The notes under the pieces are model-generated. The model searched no databases and was not told where the DNA came from. It was given only the letters and a program-made list of their open reading frames with translations. A DNA stretch of 33,969 bases from Phycisphaerae bacterium (lineage in GTDB: Bacteria > Planctomycetota > Phycisphaerae > Phycisphaerales > SM1A02). The stretch is taken from NCBI GenBank assembly GCA_002689385.1, contig NZFX01000077.1, positions 1 through 33,969 on the forward strand, read 5' to 3'. Position numbers and translations under genes: made by a program. Below, piece by piece: positions 1-21,261 of this stretch; within the stretch, counting starts at the first letter, position 1; every line of letters begins with the position of its first letter.

Positions 1-1515
<1,515 letters not shown>

Positions 1516-7627: not shown

Positions 7628-10282
7628 ATGACTACAGAACTCAATAACGGATGTGAAACTATCTCAACACCTTTGGGCGAACGAAAGGTTTACCGCCTTG
7701 ATTCGCTCGGCGCGCTTGAAACGATGCCCTATTCAATTCGGGTCTTGCTTGAATCATGCTTGCGGAACAGTGGAAACGGCATTGTTACGCAAGAGGACGT
7801 GCAATCGATAGCATCGTACGACGCAACAAACGTTGGCGAGGTGGAAATTCCTTTCTCGCCAGGCCGCGTTGTTCTGCAAGATTTTACAGGTGTTCCAGCG
7901 GTTGTGGACCTTGCAGCCATGCGAAGCGCGGTTGTCCGAATGACTGGCGACGAAGCTTCAGCCGAAAAAATTAATCCATTAGTACCCTGCGACTTGGTCA
8001 TTGACCACTCAGTACAAGTTGACGCGTTTAATTCTGAAAATGCAATAACTATCAATGGCGAAAAAGAATTCGAACGTAACAACGAACGATATGAATTTCT
8101 AAAGTGGGGGCAGGGTTCCTTTAACAACTTTAACGTCGTGCCACCAGGTACTGGCATAGTGCACCAAGTTAATTTAGAATTTCTTGCAAAAGTAACGTGG
8201 GACAATGAAGGCACGCTATACCCAGACAGTTTAGTAGGCACTGATTCACATACAACCATGATCAACGGTTTAGGCGTACTTGGTTGGGGCGTGGGCGGTA
8301 TTGAAGCTGAAGCAGTTATGCTCGGTCAACCAATTTACATGTTGATTCCTGAAGTCGTTGGTATGGAACTCAGGGGTCGATTACAAGAAGGTGTGACTGC
8401 AACGGACTTAGTACTTCGTGTTACAGAAATACTTCGGGCGCATGGCGTTGTTGGCAAGTTCGTTGAGTTTTATGGTGCAGCGCTTTCGGATATGCCGCTC
8501 GCTACTCGTGCAACACTTGCCAATATGGCACCAGAGTACGGTGCAACGATAGGATTCTTTCCTGTTGATGAGCAAACAATAAAATATATGCATCTAACAG
8601 GACGCGATGAGAAACTCATTGAAACAGTCGAGCAATATTGTAAGCTGCAAGGTTTGTGGCGAGACGATGCCCGTCCAATCAAATACACATCAACAACATC
8701 ATTAGATTTGGCAACGGTGGAACCAGCATTGTCCGGGCCAAAACGTCCGCAAGATCGCATTTTGCTTTCAGCTATGAAATCAAAATGGTTCGAAACACGA
8801 ACGGAAATGTTTGGGCATGAAGAAGTTGCCTCTGCAGAAACGCAATGTGATGGTGAAACATTTGAGATGAAAGATGGCAATGTTGCAATTGCTGCAATTA
8901 CAAGTTGTACAAATACAAGTAACCCTAGCGTTATGCTTGCCGCAGGTTTAGTCGCACAAAAGGCGAATGCGCTTGGTTTGACACGAAAACCTTGGGTAAA
9001 AACATCGCTTGCTCCTGGTAGTACCGTCGTAACTGAATACTTAAAACGCGCAGGGGTACTCGGCGATTTAGAGGCACTTGGCTTTTGGGTAGTCGGCTAC
9101 GGTTGCACTACGTGTATTGGAAACTCTGGTCCGTTGCAACAGCCAATTAAAGAAGCTATCAATGACAATGATTTGATTGCTTGTTCTGTGTTAAGTGGCA
9201 ACCGAAACTTTGAAGGCCGTATCGGCCCTGAGATAAAAGCAAACTATTTAGCGTCACCTCCGCTTGTTGTTGCGTATGCAATTGCAGGCACCGTTGACAT
9301 TGACCTTGTAACGGACCCACTTGGACATGTTGATGGTACGGATATTTTCTTGAAGGATATTTGGCCAACTAATGAAGAAGTTCAAAACACAATTAACAGT
9401 TCGCTTGGTAGAGATGAGTTTGTCGAACAGTACGCTGATGTGTTCGCAGGCGGAGATGATTGGCAAGCAGTGCAAGCAGGCACCGGGCAATTGTTTGCTT
9501 GGTCTGATGAGAGTACCTACATACACGAGCCACCATTTTTCCAAGGCATGACTTCTGAAGTGCCAGGCATTCACGCAATTGAGAACGCGCGAGTGCTTTG
9601 CAAATTGGGTGACTCAGTTACTACGGACCACATTTCGCCTGCAGGAAATATCGGTTCAGATTCTCCAGCCGGCGAATTTCTTCAGAGCCGTGGTGTTCCA
9701 GTGTCCATGTTTAATAGTTTTGGTTCTCGACGCGGTAATGATTTGGTGATGACACGTGGCACATTCGGCAATGTTCGCGTCAAGAACGAACTAGCACCAG
9801 GCACAGAGGGCGGATTTACGACTGACTTCACGACCGGCAAAGTAAGTTCCATTTATGATGCGAGCTGTAATTACAAGAATGCAGGCACGCAGTTGATTGT
9901 GCTCTCTGGCAAGGATTACGGCATGGGCTCTTCACGCGATTGGGCAGCGAAAGGAACAATGCTGCTGGGTGTGAAAGCAGTTATCGCAGAAAGTTACGAA
10001 CGAATTCATAGAAGCAATTTAGTAGGCATGGGTGTATTGCCACTTGAATACAGCATTGGGCAAACTTCGCAATCTCTTGGACTTGACGGAACAGAATCAT
10101 TTATGATTTCAATTGACGAGTCCTTGCAACCAAGGCAAATTGTTGAAGTGACAGCGGTGCATGAAAATGGAACAGTTACTTCTTTTGAAACAGTTTGTCG
10201 AATAGATACGCCGGTTGAAGTGGAGTACTACCGAAACGGCGGTATTTTACACACGGTATTGCGAAAAATGGCAACAGCATAA
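7628..10282 (+). CDS. acnA: Aconitate hydratase A
   Basis: A TCA-cycle enzyme that converts citrate to isocitrate through cis-aconitate with a [4Fe-4S] cluster in the cytosol. The 884 residues match the AcnA/IRP1 family length. Cluster cysteines are Cys427 (ITSCTNTSNPSVM) and Cys493/Cys496 (YGCTTCIGNSGP). Other family motifs are the substrate-binding segment VGTDSHTTMINGLGVLGWGVGG (around residues 203-224), SVLSGNRNFEGR and, in the swivelling C-terminal domain, GKDYGMGSSRDWAAKG. The ATG has no ribosome-binding site and is preceded by an extended -10. The gene appears intact and is closed by a strong inverted repeat. Confidence 0.97.
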   Translation: MTTELNNGCETISTPLGERKVYRLDSLGALETMPYSIRVLLESCLRNSGNGIVTQEDVQSIASYDATNVGEVEIPFSPGRVVLQDFTGVPAVVDLAAMRSAVVRMTGDEASAEKINPLVPCDLVIDHSVQVDAFNSENAITINGEKEFERNNERYEFLKWGQGSFNNFNVVPPGTGIVHQVNLEFLAKVTWDNEGTLYPDSLVGTDSHTTMINGLGVLGWGVGGIEAEAVMLGQPIYMLIPEVVGMELRGRLQEGVTATDLVLRVTEILRAHGVVGKFVEFYGAALSDMPLATRATLANMAPEYGATIGFFPVDEQTIKYMHLTGRDEKLIETVEQYCKLQGLWRDDARPIKYTSTTSLDLATVEPALSGPKRPQDRILLSAMKSKWFETRTEMFGHEEVASAETQCDGETFEMKDGNVAIAAITSCTNTSNPSVMLAAGLVAQKANALGLTRKPWVKTSLAPGSTVVTEYLKRAGVLGDLEALGFWVVGYGCTTCIGNSGPLQQPIKEAINDNDLIACSVLSGNRNFEGRIGPEIKANYLASPPLVVAYAIAGTVDIDLVTDPLGHVDGTDIFLKDIWPTNEEVQNTINSSLGRDEFVEQYADVFAGGDDWQAVQAGTGQLFAWSDESTYIHEPPFFQGMTSEVPGIHAIENARVLCKLGDSVTTDHISPAGNIGSDSPAGEFLQSRGVPVSMFNSFGSRRGNDLVMTRGTFGNVRVKNELAPGTEGGFTTDFTTGKVSSIYDASCNYKNAGTQLIVLSGKDYGMGSSRDWAAKGTMLLGVKAVIAESYERIHRSNLVGMGVLPLEYSIGQTSQSLGLDGTESFMISIDESLQPRQIVEVTAVHENGTVTSFETVCRIDTPVEVEYYRNGGILHTVLRKMATA

Positions 10283-13551: not shown

Positions 13552-15052
<1,501 letters not shown>

Positions 15053-15363: not shown

Positions 15364-15852
15364 TCATCTGGAAGATACAGTGGTGGATCTGGTTGGTGTA
15401 TCTGATGTTATTCCACCATTAATAGCAAAGGTTGTGATGAGGCCACTGTCATAAGCAGCGGGTGTTAATCCAGGAGTTGTATCTTGATTGTATCCAAGCA
15501 AAACAAGAAGCCTATCTTGCCCATTGAAAGTTGCCACTTCACCTGTTCCGTTACAGTTATTAGAACCGAGTCTTACTAGTGTGCCACCGTTGCTATTAAG
15601 AGTTCTGATTGATCCATACGAAATACTATCTCCCACATTCATTTCTTCATCAAGCAAACGAGAACTAAGGACGACAACTGCCTTCCCATCATCACTGAGA
15701 ACTTCAAACTTCTTTGCCTGTATCACATCAGGAACAGTTTGCAGACTTGTTGCACCAACAACAATTCCTGCGACAAGTAGACATCCAAACCCATAGACAA
15801 TTCTCTTGAGAGTTCGGACTGTATTTTGTAATTCAGTTATTTCATTTTGCAT
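15364..15852 (-). CDS. Membrane-anchored repeat protein, anchor paralogue A (short form)
   Basis: 162 residues. A short polar N-terminus (MQNEITELQNTVRTLKRI) is followed by one transmembrane helix (about 18-36, VYGFGCLLVAGIVVGATS) and then an outside segment. Residues 1-51 match the protein at 17369-18133 at 48 of 51 positions; beyond that the two diverge. The outer part holds two copies of a G-x-[IV]-x-T-[LF]-N-x-x-G-x-L-V-x-L motif that suggests a beta-helical stalk, then a Ser/Thr-rich end. The Shine-Dalgarno sequence (GGAG) lies about 8 nt before ATG within a conserved 5' region. Function unknown. It may be a shortened version of the longer paralogue. Confidence 0.75.
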   Translation of the reverse strand: MQNEITELQNTVRTLKRIVYGFGCLLVAGIVVGATSLQTVPDVIQAKKFEVLSDDGKAVVVLSSRLLDEEMNVGDSISYGSIRTLNSNGGTLVRLGSNNCNGTGEVATFNGQDRLLVLLGYNQDTTPGLTPAAYDSGLITTFAINGGITSDTPTRSTTVSSR

Positions 15853-15894
15853 TGAGATGCTCCTTCACTGTGCATTATGCATTAATTTGAAACA
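15700..15894. repeat. Duplicated anchor/5'-region repeat, copy 1
   Basis: Positions 15701-15894 align without gaps to 17982-18175 with 18 mismatches in 194 bases. The repeat covers codons 1-51 of the anchor gene and about 42 nt upstream, including the ribosome-binding site and a TGCATTATGCAT near-palindrome. Similarity stops sharply at both ends. Confidence 0.9.
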
Positions 15895-15973
15895 CCACGC
15901 ATTGCCCCATGCAACTCAACCCAACTGCGAAGTGCAGAGGGTGTGTCTTCAGCATCGTTTGACCTGCAGACAC

Positions 15974-16426
15974 TTACCCAAATCCAAGTATTACTCTGAT
16001 GATCTGTAGTAATATTAACAATGAAGGAAGCATAGAAATACTGAACAAAAAGAAAGTAACAGCTGCAAGTTTTCTTTCGCAGTTTCGACGAGTGAAAACA
16101 ATGCAGTTTAATAAAAACCCCAACATCGCAATCCCAAATACAGGGATATACATTAACACAAGTCCAAATCCAGCAGTGCCCCCGCCAAAACCTCTATTAG
16201 TAAGAAGACCAATAACCATAATAAGTAAGACAATAGTGAAAACGGACGTCAATACTGAACAGCAAAAAGTAATTTTTGCTGGAAACAAACTGCTGCATTT
16301 CCAAGATGAAACAAGGGTATAGGTTTCTACAAAGTCCTCTCCGCATTCTGGACAGGGATCATTATGACTTAAAGATTCTCTGTCATAACCACAATCAAAG
16401 CAAATTTTTTCTGTCTGATTCTGCAT
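15974..16426 (-). CDS. Zinc-ribbon multi-pass membrane protein
   Basis: 150 residues. The N-terminus holds a four-cysteine zinc ribbon (CFDCGYDRESLSHNDPCPECG), a form common in Planctomycetota membrane proteins. Three hydrophobic segments follow (about 52-78, 85-110 and 120-147). The likely location is the inner membrane with a cytosolic ribbon. Function unknown. The gene reads in the same direction as its neighbours on both sides and is separated from them by 26-120 nt. Confidence 0.78.
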   Translation of the reverse strand: MQNQTEKICFDCGYDRESLSHNDPCPECGEDFVETYTLVSSWKCSSLFPAKITFCCSVLTSVFTIVLLIMVIGLLTNRGFGGGTAGFGLVLMYIPVFGIAMLGFLLNCIVFTRRNCERKLAAVTFFLFSISMLPSLLILLQIIRVILGFG

Positions 16427-16452
16427 TATTGTGTTACTAATTTACTGTGCTT

Positions 16453-16611
16453 TTACTTCTTGCGCCAGTTTAATCCATCATCAAATTTTTGATCAATAAC
16501 ATTTTTTTCTCTTAAATGCATGACCAATTTTGTATATGCCCTAGCTATACCTATGCTCAGTGTTAATCCCATGACCCCAGTAAAAAGTGCAACTATTGAT
16601 AATGCATCCAT
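16453..16611 (-). CDS. Microprotein with one membrane helix (52 residues)
   Basis: The ATG at 16609-16611 is preceded by an excellent Shine-Dalgarno sequence (AAGGAG, about 9 nt away). The frame encodes MDALSIVALFTGVMGLTLSI..., a single hydrophobic helix followed by a charged tail ending DGLNWRKK. The ribosome-binding site and the helix-plus-charged-tail layout support a real gene. It lies 26 nt upstream of the zinc-ribbon gene on the same strand, so the two may be co-transcribed. Function unknown. Confidence 0.62.
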   Translation of the reverse strand: MDALSIVALFTGVMGLTLSIGIARAYTKLVMHLREKNVIDQKFDDGLNWRKK

Positions 16612-16644
16612 CTAAAAGTTCTCCTTTTCATTTATTATATCCTA

Positions 16645-16824
16645 GTGTTTAAGGCATTTAAATTGATATGGATATTGTTTCTCACTATTATTGGAGGAAT
16701 CGCCGGCGCGATATTGCTTGGAGGATTCTCTTCAATATCTCTTTCTACAATTGGAGCAATTATTGGTTTGCCAGTGGGGTATTTCCTTGGGAAATATATA
16801 TCAATCTATGAGTGGTTTACTTAA
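16645..16824 (+). CDS. Microprotein rich in Gly, likely membrane (59 residues)
   Basis: The frame runs from GTG 16645 (or TTG 16663, which has AAGG 8 nt upstream) to TAA 16822-16824. It encodes two hydrophobic segments with Gly zippers (LTIIGGIAGAILLGGF, IGAIIGLPVGYFLGKY), consistent with a small two-helix membrane protein. Alternative frames give an unnatural Trp/Arg/Asn-rich product. The start is uncertain. The gene is divergent from the 52-residue gene and overlaps the stop of the convergent SRPBCC gene. Function unknown. Confidence 0.5.
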   Translation: MFKAFKLIWILFLTIIGGIAGAILLGGFSSISLSTIGAIIGLPVGYFLGKYISIYEWFT

Positions 16825-17318
16825 TTAAAATATTTAATTAGGAAGTCTGTCCTGTGCTGAAATATTTTGAGGACGTCTTTTTTTACAAAAATCTTATTTA
16901 TAAGAGAGCCGCCAAAGACCTTGTATCTAACGACGTCTTTCATCTTTGTTACCCCGTTCTCTTCCGAAAAATCATGTGAATGGATCCACTGCATGTATGG
17001 GCCTTTTAGCTGCGTGTCTTCAAAACTGTACGGTGGGTTCCATTTTGAGATCAATGTTTTCCAACGTATAGGTATATGATGAATCTTTAATTTGTAATCA
17101 ATGATAGAACCTTCTTCTAATGGAGTTGTAGGAGCATCAGTAATTTTAAATTGCAATAATTTTGGAGTAATTAATTCTAAGTTGTTTGGATTAGCAAAGA
17201 ATTCAAAAACTTCTTGAATAGGTCTTGGAATAAAAATTTCACATGTGAGTATAAATTCACCATTATGTTTTTCGATTGTAGGTATTGTGTATGTAATAAT
17301 ATTGTTAAGCCCTTCCAT
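16821..17318 (-). CDS. SRPBCC-superfamily (START-like) ligand-binding protein
   Basis: 165 residues, cytosolic. The pattern IFIPRPIQEVFEFFANPNNL followed by LELITPKLLQFKI and EGSIIDYKLKIHHIPIRWKTLISKWNPP is typical of the SRPBCC/polyketide-cyclase-like fold, which encloses a hydrophobic ligand. The substrate is unknown. Codon use is strikingly A/T-rich (many AAT, ATT, AAA) compared with housekeeping genes in this window, which may mark recent acquisition. The stop codon overlaps the convergent microgene's stop inside an AT palindrome. The start has only a weak ribosome-binding site. Confidence 0.8.
   Translation of the reverse strand: MEGLNNIITYTIPTIEKHNGEFILTCEIFIPRPIQEVFEFFANPNNLELITPKLLQFKITDAPTTPLEEGSIIDYKLKIHHIPIRWKTLISKWNPPYSFEDTQLKGPYMQWIHSHDFSEENGVTKMKDVVRYKVFGGSLINKIFVKKDVLKIFQHRTDFLIKYFN
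16822..16840. repeat. AT palindrome across convergent stop codons
   Basis: TAATTAAA/TTTAATTA around a 3-nt centre covers both convergent stop codons. It may be a weak bidirectional terminator, but it lacks GC pairs. Confidence 0.5.
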
Positions 17319-17368
17319 GTCATTAAGTCTCGTTTTGTTGCTTTTATAATTGAAAGTTATGGAATTGT

Positions 17369-18133
17369 TTAATTCGCTCCACCATTTTTGTCAAATGTTT
17401 TGATAATGCCTTTTCCATTCGACGTAACGGTCATCTGAGCCACATCAATGCCTGTAAAATGTTCTTTGCCGCCATCGCCTCGAATAGAAAAGCCTCCTAG
17501 CCAAGTCCCACCATTGGCATTTTGAGCAACTGACATCATAGACCAAAGCACTGGGCTTTTAGGCACCGTTGCATTAGCTGTTACGTAGCCGCCTTTGGCG
17601 CCGATTGACATGACGACACCAGGTATACCTTCGGAATTCATAACAGTGATTCTTCCGCTACCTTCACTATTTTTATTAATAGTATCATTTAAGGTCTCGA
17701 GTGCAATCCCAACGCCTTCTTCCTTGTTGAGAACTTCAATTCTCGATCCTCTAATGACACCGTTTCCATTGTTATCTGTGGCAAGCGATACAAGAGTATC
17801 TCCCTTGTTATTCTTAGTTTGGATTGCACCACTTCCGTGATTATTCATTCCCATCAAGATGAGTTTTTTCCCCTGACTATTGTATGTGGAGATTATTCCG
17901 CCTTCCTGATGTGATTTTTTTGAGTTTAGCTGAGTCGTTGACCCGCTAATTAGAACAAACACCTTCCCCTCATCATTCACAACTTCAAACTTCTTTGCCT
18001 GAATCACATCAGGAACAGTTTGCAGACTCGTTGCACCAACAACAATGCCTGCAACTAATAGACATCCAAACCCATAGACAATTCTCTTGAGTGTCCTGAT
18101 TTGATTTCGTAATTCAGTTATTTCGTTTTGCAT
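17369..18133 (-). CDS. Membrane-anchored repeat protein, anchor paralogue B (long form)
   Basis: 254 residues. The N-terminal anchor (MQNEITELRNQIRTLKRIVY and a transmembrane helix to about residue 36, then SLQTVPDVIQAKKFEV) is nearly identical to that of the protein at 15364-15852. The outer region has repeated motifs of the form G-x-I-x-T-x-N-x-x-G-x-x-L-V-x-L-x-x-x-N-x-G (examples: GGIISTYNSQGKKLILMG, GAIQTKNNKGDTLVSLAT, GRITVMNSEGIPGVVMSI), suggesting a beta-solenoid stalk. A Gly/Trp-containing C-terminal part (GGTWLGGFSIRGDGG) ends in GIIKTFDKNGG. The Shine-Dalgarno sequence GGAG precedes ATG. The position is consistent with a surface-exposed or periplasmic filamentous protein; function unknown. 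Confidence 0.8.
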   Translation of the reverse strand: MQNEITELRNQIRTLKRIVYGFGCLLVAGIVVGATSLQTVPDVIQAKKFEVVNDEGKVFVLISGSTTQLNSKKSHQEGGIISTYNSQGKKLILMGMNNHGSGAIQTKNNKGDTLVSLATDNNGNGVIRGSRIEVLNKEEGVGIALETLNDTINKNSEGSGRITVMNSEGIPGVVMSIGAKGGYVTANATVPKSPVLWSMMSVAQNANGGTWLGGFSIRGDGGKEHFTGIDVAQMTVTSNGKGIIKTFDKNGGAN

Positions 18134-18175
18134 TGTGATGCTCCTTCACTGTGCATTATGCATAAATCCGAAACA
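17981..18175. repeat. Duplicated anchor/5'-region repeat, copy 2
   Basis: Counterpart of 15700-15894 at a constant offset of 2281 bases. The 42 non-coding bases upstream of the ATG differ at only four positions, so the duplication carried the translation signals and perhaps the promoter-proximal region. Confidence 0.9.
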
Positions 18176-18348
18176 TTGCGCAACTTCAACAATTTATATA
18201 ATATTTTTTGTATTGCATAATGGCGTTTGTCAAAGACCCATGTTGCGATAGTTCTTCTTCTAGGTAATGGTTTTACAAAGTAAAACCTACGCACAGCAGT
18301 GAAAAGAACTGGAACAAAAATGGTTGTCAGCATCTATGTACTAAAGAT

Positions 18349-18383: not shown

Positions 18384-19373
18384 ATGACAAAAACTATTTC
18401 GTTTATTCTTTCTATTCTTATTGTTTCGATTGCACAAGCGCAAATTCGTATTGTGAATTACAACATTGCAAAGTGTATTGGTGACCATGACGCGATCGAT
18501 TACGTTGTTGACGCGGCTTCGCTTGATGATAGTGAAGGCGATGCGTTTCCTGTTTCTGTATTTCTGTTCCAAGAAGTTTCGAGTGGTAAAGAAAAAATCC
18601 TGCATCGCATGCTTGGTGATACTTATTCTAAGGGAACGTATACAAATCAAGGTGAAGCGGGCGGCGCGCAAGCTATGTTTTTTAATTCAAAACAACTGAA
18701 AGAAAAGACAAGTTCTCACAAGGATATTTTTACGGGTGCAACGCGGTATGCCGACAGGTGGCACTTAGTAGGCATTAAAGAAAGCAAAGGCGTAGAGTTT
18801 TATGTGTACAGCATGCACTTAAAGGCGTCAAAGGGAACCGAAAATAAAGAGCAACGAGAATTTGGAGCAATCGCAATTCTAGAAGACATCGCAACATTGC
18901 CGGAAGAAGCAAACATCATTGTTGTTGGCGATATGAATTTTTATTCGAATACAGAGCCAGCATACAAAGCGTTTGTCAAAGTGCTTATTGATCCACTTGG
19001 AAAAGGCGAGTGGAAAGGTGAGGACGACGCTGAAAAACATACACAGTCACCGAGAAAAATCCAAAAAGGTGGGCTTGTGCATGGTTGCCTCGATGACCGT
19101 TTTGATTTTCAGTTTATCAGTAAGTCTTTGAGAGACGGAAAAGGTATGGAATTAATAGGCGGATCGTACCGCGCTATGGGTAATGACGGCAAGCATTATG
19201 ACCAAGCAATTAACGATAACGGCACTGATAGTAAGTATTTTTCTAATGACAAAGAGCGTAGCAACGAGCTTGCTACTGCGTTGCATGATGCATCTGATCA
19301 TATTCCCGTAATCGTTGATTACGAGTTCAAAAAGCAAAAGAAGAAGAAAATAGCCCCTAGTACCGAAGAATGA
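18384..19373 (+). CDS. Secreted endonuclease/exonuclease/phosphatase-fold protein
   Basis: 329 residues. The signal peptide is MTKTISFILSILIVSIAQAQ. The catalytic framework of the EEP (DNase I-like) superfamily is present: Asn27 in NYNIA, Glu64 in FLFQEV, His145 in YSMHLKAS, Asp183/Asn185 in VVGDMNFY, and Asp305-His306 in SDHIPVI. It is probably a secreted metal-dependent phosphodiesterase acting on nucleic acid or another phosphoester; the substrate is unknown. It ends with a basic KKQKKKK tail and lacks the dockerin of its downstream paralogue. Strong similarity to the next gene along the entire catalytic domain indicates tandem duplication. No ribosome-binding site is seen. Confidence 0.85.
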   Translation: MTKTISFILSILIVSIAQAQIRIVNYNIAKCIGDHDAIDYVVDAASLDDSEGDAFPVSVFLFQEVSSGKEKILHRMLGDTYSKGTYTNQGEAGGAQAMFFNSKQLKEKTSSHKDIFTGATRYADRWHLVGIKESKGVEFYVYSMHLKASKGTENKEQREFGAIAILEDIATLPEEANIIVVGDMNFYSNTEPAYKAFVKVLIDPLGKGEWKGEDDAEKHTQSPRKIQKGGLVHGCLDDRFDFQFISKSLRDGKGMELIGGSYRAMGNDGKHYDQAINDNGTDSKYFSNDKERSNELATALHDASDHIPVIVDYEFKKQKKKKIAPSTEE

Positions 19374-19437
19374 CATAAACCTCATTTTTTAGTGGTTTTT
19401 TTGCGTTCATGTTGTACACTTGCACGAAGGTATGGGC

Positions 19438-21261
19438 ATGATGAAACAAGTATGTATTGCAATTGGCGCACTTTGGATTTCTACAGTGGCTTCTGCACAG
19501 ATACGAGTTATGAGTTACAACATCGCTCAGTTCAAGGGCGATGCAAATGCCATGGCTGATGTCTTACAAGCAGCAAGTGACGATGACTCCCACGGGTTCG
19601 CAACACCTGTTTCTGTTTTTCTTTTTCAAGAAGTAGATGAAGCTGATTTGTCGTTGTTGCAATCCATTGTCGGTGCTAGTTACACCATGGCAACTTTTAC
19701 TGACCAAAACGATAGTAACTGGGGCGGGGCTCAAGCGATGTTTTACAATGCATCACAGTTTGTGGAAAACACATCCTTGCATTATGATATTTATACAGGA
19801 GCAAGCCGCCATGCAGATCGTTGGGCGTTAAATGTTACGGGATACAACGGTAAACGAATCTATGTGTATTCGATGCACTTGAAAGCATCGCCTGGTTCTA
19901 CAAATGAAGAAACAAGACGACAGGGGGCTGAGAGCGTCCGTGATGACATTATGACATTGCCACTTAATAGTCATGTTATCGTAGTGGGAGACATGAACTT
20001 CTATTCGCCAAGCGAGCCAGCATACGATTGGTTTATAGCTTCGGGTGATGGAGAACTTGTTGACCCACTTGGAAATGGGTCAAGTTGGTCAGGTGGATCC
20101 AATGCTCTAAAGCATACGCAGTCGCCACTTTTAAATCAAAACGGTGGACTTATTGGAGGTGGCCTTGATGATCGTTTTGATTTTCAATTCCTTTCGCCTT
20201 CTTTGCTTGATGGTGGTGGGTTTGATTTAATCAATGGAACGTATCGTGCGCTTGGGAATGATGGCAATCATTACAACGATGCTATTAATGCGGGGAATAA
20301 TTATTACTTTCCTGGTGATACTGCAAGAGGCAACGCGCTTGCTGATAAACTCATCATTGCTTCGGACCATATGCCACTGATTGCGGATTACCAAGTACCC
20401 GCCGTGCTCGGCTGGGAATGGAATTCTTCAGAGAATCGTGTTATTGTTGGAGCGATTTCTACAGTAGATTTTATTATTCGCAATGATGCACCAGTTTCGC
20501 ATATCCTCGCTGCTGATGTGCTTGATGTTTCCCTCATTGCTGAGGGCGGAATAACAGGCACTCAATCGGTCTCGATTCCCGCACTTAATCCACCTACTGT
20601 TGTGGCTTTGCCAGTTGACACATCGGTTTTAGGCACATGGAATGGTACAGTAACCTTAACGTCGACAAGTCCTGAAGCGCAAACAACCCCTGAAGTCATT
20701 CAATTGAATGGGGAAGTCATCGGCCACGCAAATGCTTCATTTGATTTTGCGAATGACCTAGACTGGTTTACGTACGACTTTGTGTTTGAGGCAAACACTG
20801 GTGTGCAAGCTTTTAATGTTTTGCTTTTCAATTACGGCTTTGATGGCTCGCAGTCTTTGCTTGAAATTGATGACGTGTCAACGCCAGAGCTGCCAATCAT
20901 GTTCAATGGACTTTCAACCAATGTTGTTGGTTCATTGCCGGCACTGATGGATTTCTCGATAGACACAGACGCAACAACGCCTGATACCTACACATCGTTC
21001 CTTCCAATTTCGTTTAGCGATGAAGATTTGCTTGGTGAACAAAGCGGTATATCAATGTTGACTATTCGTGTTGAAGTTATACCTTCAACAACTATTTGCT
21101 CAGAAGATTTTGATGACGATGGCGATGTTGATGTTGCTGATATTTTGATTCTTATTGCGGATTGGGGAAGCAGCGATGTGATGCATGACTTAGACAACAA
21201 TGGTATCGTTGGGGTTGGTGATTTACTCTTGATGATTGCTGCTTGGGGTCCTTGTGCATAA
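19438..21261 (+). CDS. Secreted EEP-fold nuclease/phosphatase with extra beta domain and dockerin
   Basis: 607 residues from ATG 19438 (GAAGG at 7 nt; 19441 is equally possible, and the upstream in-frame TTG 19420 is less likely). A signal peptide (MMKQVCIAIGALWISTVASA) is followed by an EEP domain (about 21-320) with Asn28, Glu65, His147, Asp185/Asn187 and Asp310-His311. A middle region of about 230 residues looks like one or two Ig/beta-sandwich modules. The last 54 residues are a two-loop dockerin-like module (DFDDDGDVDVADILILIADW, DLDNNGIVGVGDLLLMIAAW, ending GPCA). The enzyme is likely displayed on or attached to a surface scaffold through the dockerin. It is a paralogue of the preceding gene. 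Confidence 0.87.
   Translation: MMKQVCIAIGALWISTVASAQIRVMSYNIAQFKGDANAMADVLQAASDDDSHGFATPVSVFLFQEVDEADLSLLQSIVGASYTMATFTDQNDSNWGGAQAMFYNASQFVENTSLHYDIYTGASRHADRWALNVTGYNGKRIYVYSMHLKASPGSTNEETRRQGAESVRDDIMTLPLNSHVIVVGDMNFYSPSEPAYDWFIASGDGELVDPLGNGSSWSGGSNALKHTQSPLLNQNGGLIGGGLDDRFDFQFLSPSLLDGGGFDLINGTYRALGNDGNHYNDAINAGNNYYFPGDTARGNALADKLIIASDHMPLIADYQVPAVLGWEWNSSENRVIVGAISTVDFIIRNDAPVSHILAADVLDVSLIAEGGITGTQSVSIPALNPPTVVALPVDTSVLGTWNGTVTLTSTSPEAQTTPEVIQLNGEVIGHANASFDFANDLDWFTYDFVFEANTGVQAFNVLLFNYGFDGSQSLLEIDDVSTPELPIMFNGLSTNVVGSLPALMDFSIDTDATTPDTYTSFLPISFSDEDLLGEQSGISMLTIRVEVIPSTTICSEDFDDDGDVDVADILILIADWGSSDVMHDLDNNGIVGVGDLLLMIAAWGPCA

What the first reader, a model, noticed from the sequence alone, without database searches (positions are those of the whole stretch)
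15364..18175. Paralogue pair with a conserved membrane anchor and 5' region but divergent repeat ectodomains
The proteins at 15364-15852 and 17369-18133 share 48 of 51 N-terminal residues and about 42 nt of upstream DNA (18 mismatches in 194 bases, no gaps). Beyond that they diverge into different numbers and kinds of G-x-I-x-T-x-N-x-x-G-x-L-V-x-L repeats. A fixed anchor plus fixed expression signals with changing outer repeats looks like a surface-variation or multi-effector family. The family sits in an accessory patch next to the 16S gene. No function is known to me; the beta-solenoid reading is inference.
Basis: partly seen in the sequence, partly recalled or inferred. Interest (0 to 1): 0.62.

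Follow-up and report, generated by a model that had tools for sequence, protein, structure and literature searches.

The report
Envelope proteins with swapped outer halves
In a small-genomed planctomycete, two neighbouring genes share the same start signal and membrane anchor but carry outer halves related to those of other genera, so the outer part of an envelope protein is apparently being swapped by recombination between bacteria, with no dedicated swapping enzyme in sight.

Summary
In detail: genes A (15364-15852) and B (17369-18133) share 48/51 anchor residues and ~42 nt of upstream DNA, then diverge. They are chimeras. Synonymous divergence is low in the anchor (pS 0.25) and high beyond it (0.62); a housekeeping gene is near saturation between the same species (0.70-0.77). 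A's outer part is closest to a gene of another genus whose anchor is unlike A's; tree tests agree. The layout recurs in another genus. The start of the shared block is a separate dispersed module (promoter-like core, ribosome-binding site, first codons): 8 copies here, present in 10 of 13 genus genomes, often before unrelated small genes. Gene-sized pieces up to 96% identical occur between genera with unrelated flanks. The site between 16S and a nuclease gene holds different genes in different species. No integron integrase above cut-off and no serine recombinase was found, so ordinary homologous recombination is likeliest. The repeats are predicted as a single-layer beta-meander (OspA/MORN-like), not a solenoid. 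The family is absent from Pfam and NCBIfam but occurs in 149 of 181 genomes of its bacterial family. Function is unknown; an exchangeable envelope surface is inferred.

The parts
15364..15852 (-). gene A, 162 aa: anchor plus about 3 repeats
15700..15852 (-). gene A anchor (codons 1-51): N-terminal predicted helix and hydrophobic segment, then VPDVIQAKKFEV
   Evidence: helix 2-37 in the model of the homologous protein B
15367..15699 (-). gene A outer part, closest to a gene of another genus (G187, 77% aa over 96 columns; 82.6% nt over 368 bp)
17369..18133 (-). gene B, 254 aa: same anchor, longer and different repeat region
17981..18133 (-). gene B anchor (codons 1-51), 48/51 identical to A
17372..17980 (-). 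gene B outer part, closest to a fragment in another genus (G046 contig 6, 56% aa over 85 columns)
15840..15907 (-). 5' module of gene A: core CAAATTAATGCATAATGCACA, AAGGAG ribosome-binding site, ATG and first codons
18113..18175 (-). 5' module of gene B, same elements
15665..15901 (-). shared 237-nt block, copy in A (5' module + anchor)
17946..18182 (-). shared 237-nt block, copy in B
15974..16426 (-). intervening accessory gene, 150 aa, N-terminal zinc-ribbon-like motif (sub-threshold) plus hydrophobic segments
16821..17318 (-). intervening accessory gene, 165 aa, polyketide cyclase/lipid-transport-like (sub-threshold)
18235..18333 (-). remnant (33 codons, 48% identity) of a gene that is 111 aa and intact at this site in G006; it stops about 55 bp before the B block

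Best explanation
A and B are recombinant chimeras in a large family of anchored repeat proteins. SHOWN: a shared block (5' module with promoter-like core, ribosome-binding site and first codons, plus membrane anchor) is joined to two outer parts of different ancestry; the joint lies between about codons 34 and 58; anchor and outer part have been exchanged independently between species and genera; the 5' module itself is dispersed and also precedes unrelated small genes; the site between 16S and the nuclease gene has different gene content in different congeners. INFERRED: exchange happens by ordinary homologous recombination of imported DNA, with the conserved 5' module and anchor (about 200 bp at 86-90% identity) as crossover regions, so a new outer part lands behind a working promoter and membrane anchor. 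The protein would be inner-membrane-anchored, N-in, and show a rigid single-layer beta-meander to the periplasm or cell exterior, as an exchangeable binding or shielding surface. Its ligand and the selective force (phages, grazers, neighbours) are unknown.
For: Anchor versus outer part: A-B pS 0.25/pN 0.04 against 0.62/0.46; A-G005 0.25 against 0.71 (Fisher p 4e-4 and 1e-5). Housekeeping aconitase-like gene between the same species: pS 0.70-0.77, so the low anchor value is not species divergence. Reciprocal discordance: A versus G187 (another genus) anchor pS 0.63/pN 0.27, outer part 0.39/0.14 (p 0.015). Reverse mosaic: G180-G181 outer part pS 0.04 but anchor 0.25, with the break inside the anchor (p 0.0016). 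Trees: the anchor data reject A+G187 (AU p 6e-5) and allow A+B; the outer-part data reject A+B (p 0.003) and the genus as one clade (p 0.002). Independent repeat of the layout: G046 tandem pair, anchor pS 0.19 against 0.66; G210 tandem triple, weaker contrast. Dispersed 5' module: 8 copies in this genome, 10/13 genus genomes, 29 hits against 2 for the reversed-pattern control, before unrelated ORFs. Gene-sized blocks 94-96% identical between genera with unrelated flanks. Site turnover: A/B array here, sulfatase-like gene in G001, G002, G003 and G004, one module-led 45-aa gene in G005, a 111-aa gene in G006. Predicted fold. Family breadth: 149/181 genomes, 41/45 genera.
Against: All are draft, mostly metagenome-derived assemblies; contigs often end at module copies, so copy numbers and some joints are uncertain. 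A-B anchors are no closer than A-G005 anchors, so the data show a shared pool, not gene conversion within this genome. Only one housekeeping gene was used as yardstick. The anchor tree has few columns (53). No read, expression or localisation data. The model of B itself is poor (pLDDT 58.6); the fold rests on a relative (pLDDT 74, repeats about 72-92) built from 10 sequences. No sigma-70 match was found at the core, so 'promoter' is inference. Topology and signal-peptide cleavage were not tested.
Confidence: 0.68

Rival explanations
1. Plain tandem duplication of one gene, then purifying selection on the anchor and fast divergence of the repeats.
For: Two nearby copies, same strand; repeats are known in general to change fast. 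The G210 triple, with pS 0.14-0.35 in anchor and 0.21-0.36 in outer part, fits this.
Against: Synonymous sites of the anchor are also conserved; A's and B's outer parts group with different genera and the trees reject A+B there; reverse mosaic G180-G181.
Confidence: 0.12
2. The 5' module and anchor are constrained at DNA level (translation start, regulation), so low synonymous divergence is selection, not recombination.
For: A 21-bp core is conserved even where flanks differ; reduced synonymous change near gene starts is generally known.
Against: In genus g33 the anchors have pS 0.25-0.54, comparable to their outer parts; codons 13-51 alone of A-B give 0.27; it does not explain the outer parts' affinity to other genera.
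Confidence: 0.08
3. Integron-like cassettes: each small gene is a site-specific cassette and the repeat is a recombination site.
For: Small accessory genes of cassette type (GNAT, VOC-like, small membrane proteins), a repeat between them, hairpin-forming upstream DNA.
Against: No match above the IntI cut-off in 13 genomes; the hits are lower-scoring tyrosine recombinases, about two per genome, as in control genomes. The repeat lies at the gene 5' end and runs into the coding sequence, unlike attC. I saw no attC core-site consensus by eye; no attC model was run.
Confidence: 0.05
4. Programmed surface variation inside one cell (phase or antigenic variation).
For: Layout resembles fixed-anchor variable-repeat antigens, such as the ureaplasma MBA N-terminal paralogues (PMC3047005).
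Against: Two complete genes only; no serine invertase/resolvase in 13 genomes; no long inverted repeats at the locus.
Confidence: 0.04
5. Assembly artefact: contigs wrongly joined at the repeated anchor.
For: Draft assemblies; many module copies sit at contig ends.
Against: Longest exact A/B match is 33 bp, short for a false join at the larger k-mers commonly used; both genes lie on one contig; the pattern recurs in independent genomes.
Confidence: 0.05

Closest known systems
Ureaplasma MBA and its N-terminal paralogues (PMC3047005); also mycoplasma Vsp/Vlp lipoproteins (from memory)
   Same: Surface-type proteins with a shared N-terminal part and differing remainder; chimeric genes formed by recombination.
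   Different: There: site-specific DNA inversion within a genome and phase switching of a lipoprotein. Here: no serine invertase, no lipobox seen, mosaicism between species and genera, predicted helix anchor.
Replacement flexible genomic islands of aquatic prokaryotes (PMC4033161) and SAR11 HVR2 beside rRNA genes (PMC2217521)
   Same: Variable gene content at a fixed site; exposed structures; exchange by homologous recombination proposed; rRNA genes as flanks in SAR11 HVR2.
   Different: Those are larger islands exchanged between strains or close clades; here the swapped unit is a gene or half a gene, across genera, with a shared start module.
OspA single-layer beta-sheet and MORN-repeat proteins
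   Same: Predicted fold: free-standing beta-meander; period 23-24 residues (MORN about 23, from memory). VIA Z 14.3 to 6kk9_D, about 10.8 to Morn1.
   Different: Sequence identity 4-16%, no MORN match by profile; OspA is a lipoprotein, this family has an N-terminal helix anchor.
Integron gene cassettes
   Same: Arrays of small accessory genes with repeated DNA between them.
   Different: No IntI above cut-off; repeat includes the start codon and first codons.

Membership tests
Integron / attC cassette array | Integron integrase (IntI) in the genome | tested here: not met
   0 of 13 genus genomes over the TIGR02249 cut-off; only lower-scoring tyrosine recombinases. Drafts, so absence is not absolute.
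Integron / attC cassette array | attC site at the 3' end of each cassette | tested here: inconclusive
   Repeat lies at the 5' end and runs into the coding sequence; no attC model was available.
Phase/antigenic variation system with DNA inversion | Serine invertase/resolvase | tested here: not met
   0 of 13 genomes, PF00239; tyrosine-type invertases not excluded.
Phase/antigenic variation system with DNA inversion | Inverted repeats or silent cassettes at the locus | tested here: not met
   Only two short imperfect 18-nt inverted pairs; two complete genes, no partial copies in this genome.
MORN-repeat proteins | Match to the MORN profile | tested here: not met
   No MORN match in Pfam for A, B (E up to 1) or relatives (E up to 0.1).
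MORN / OspA-like single-layer beta-meander | Fold | tested here: inconclusive
   Relative's model pLDDT 74, Z up to 14.3; B's own model too weak.
Beta-solenoid proteins | Solenoid fold in structure prediction | tested here: inconclusive
   Best matches are OspA, MORN and Rhs-type sheets; a missing solenoid match does not exclude one.
Replacement flexible genomic island | Same site, different genes in relatives | tested here: met
   Content between 16S and the nuclease gene differs among G000 and G001-G006; some contigs end at the site.
Replacement flexible genomic island | Exchange by homologous recombination at flanks | not testable with these tools
   Needs population or strain-level genomes.

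The most novel reading that the evidence does not exclude
A travelling expression-and-anchoring module: a short dispersed DNA unit (promoter, ribosome-binding site, first codons, in some copies a membrane anchor) serves as common homology for capturing foreign outer domains and small genes, giving an integron-like cassette economy without an integrase, across genera of Phycisphaerales.
Probability: 0.25. Interest if true: 0.78.

Novelty: new variant of a known kind. Interest (0 to 1): 0.55.

Why it matters
It gives a measurable case of half-gene exchange between genera at a fixed anchor/outer-part joint, and of a shared start module in front of unrelated small envelope genes, in small-genomed Phycisphaerales known here mostly from MAGs. 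If confirmed, it offers a way for such cells to test new envelope proteins that arrive already expressed and membrane-anchored, without a dedicated recombinase. The protein family is widespread (149 of 181 genomes) and absent from Pfam and NCBIfam.

Tried and rejected
Pfam, NCBIfam, PHROGs, PADLOC and PDB sequence searches: no informative match for A or B. Integron reading: rejected on integrase and position of the repeat. Serine-recombinase inversion: none. Sigma-70 scan of the locus: no more promoter-like sites than in shuffles, and none at the module core, so the core is called promoter-like only by position. AlphaFold of B: low confidence. Palindrome TGCATaATGCA in the core considered as an operator: its right half varies among copies, so not pursued. 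Gene conversion between A and B within this genome: not supported over a shared pool, as A-B and A-G005 anchors are equally close. No beta-solenoid among the structural matches. Paper searches for a prior description in Phycisphaerales found none in the library; subscription papers are mostly not held.

Full report
CHECK. The two ORFs, the 48/51 anchor and the conserved upstream stretch are real. The shared block is one 237-nt direct repeat at 86%; identity falls to background beyond about -60 and beyond about codon 58. The own genome (1.94 Mb, 87 contigs) has only these two full copies.

FAMILY. A profile of the anchor finds the family in 149 of 181 genomes and 41 of 45 genera of the same bacterial family, with up to 8 copies per genome. 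Named records are Phycisphaerales or other Planctomycetota, mostly MAGs, with two odd labels, Bacillota and Proteobacteria, that may be binning errors. Isolation sources were not looked up. No Pfam or NCBIfam family covers it. Members have an N-terminal stretch with conserved hydrophobic positions and an R-x-L-K-R-like cluster, a hydrophobic segment, a conserved VPDVIQAKKFEVVNDxG stretch, 23-residue repeats, and often a TSxxP end. One relative carries an OB-fold-like C-terminal domain (sub-threshold).

DIVERGENCE. Between A and B, pS is 0.25 in the anchor and 0.62 outside it; between A and G005, 0.25 and 0.71. An aconitase-like gene (window 7628-10279; name from my knowledge of the sequence) gives pS 0.70-0.77 between G000 and its congeners. 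So anchors are far younger than the species split, both in A/B and between species. In genus g33 anchors are not specially low (pS 0.25-0.54), so the anchor is not intrinsically frozen at synonymous sites.

CHIMERAS. A's outer part is nearest to G187 of another genus (77% aa, 82.6% nt over 368 bp), whose anchor is unlike A's (pS 0.63). B's outer part is nearest to a fragment in G046, a third genus. AU tests: anchors reject A+G187 (p 6e-5); outer parts reject A+B (p 0.003) and the genus (p 0.002) (the A+G187 pair was chosen after seeing the tree). G180-G181 show the opposite mosaic. G046 has an independent tandem pair with its own conserved 5' region. A G210 triple is similar but fits duplication better.

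5' MODULE. Consensus, roughly: CAATTTGATGCATAATGCACAGTGAAGGAGCATCACA-ATGCAAAACGAA. It occurs 8 times in the own genome and in 10 of 13 genus genomes, 29 hits against 2 for the reversed pattern. It precedes this family, other MQNE-starting small membrane proteins, a GNAT gene and others; in some places only the core is present. Many copies sit at contig ends, as repeats do in draft assemblies.

EXCHANGE. Blocks of 362-508 bp, mostly 94-96% identical, occur between genera with unrelated flanks: GNAT (L088/L091), RRM-like (L082/L091), VOC-like and a membrane protein (L037/L040; 94% and 88%) (RRM and VOC names from sequence inspection). For L037/L040 pS is 0.08-0.13. Misbinned contigs could produce some of this.

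LOCUS. Between 16S and the nuclease gene, G001, G002, G003 and G004 have a sulfatase-like gene (name from sequence inspection), G005 one module-led 45-aa gene, G006 a 111-aa gene; G009 and G011 contigs do not reach the 16S. In the window a 33-codon remnant of the G006 gene ends about 55 bp before the B block, consistent with replacement. G006 has no module or anchor match.

STRUCTURE. B: pLDDT 58.6. L108 relative: pLDDT 74, repeats about 72-92. Foldseek and VIA-align put it with OspA single-layer sheets (Z 14.3) and Morn1 (Z about 10.8), at 4-16% identity. For repeats such Z may reflect only a common arrangement.

MECHANISM. No IntI over cut-off and no serine recombinase in 13 genomes. Homologous recombination of imported DNA is therefore the default, not a shown mechanism. 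Comparable ideas exist for SAR11 HVR2 (PMC2217521) and replacement islands (PMC4033161).

Noticed in passing
window 1-1512, 1786-1892, 13552-15046: rRNA genes are split: 23S and 5S lie about 12 kb upstream of a lone 16S, with protein genes between.
   Followed up: no
window 18384-19373 and 19420-21261: Tandem endonuclease/exonuclease/phosphatase-like paralogues; the second has a C-terminal dockerin-like stretch. Both occur next to each other in most congeners.
   Followed up: partly
L034 8533-9001: The G004 anchor gene is broken: the repeat part continues in another frame after about codon 58.
   Followed up: no
L077 3144-4919: Row of six small same-strand membrane-protein-like ORFs with three module cores between them; two share their C-terminal segment but not the N-terminal part.
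   Followed up: partly
L103 2517-3137 and L170: C-terminal tails rich in HHLEC look like read-through into a dispersed intergenic repeat.
   Followed up: no
L118 3989-4948: Family member fused to an OB-fold-like (tRNA_anti-like, sub-threshold) domain.
   Followed up: no
L037 2296-2412: A 38-aa protein with the family's N-terminal stretch, a different hydrophobic segment and no outer part.
   Followed up: no
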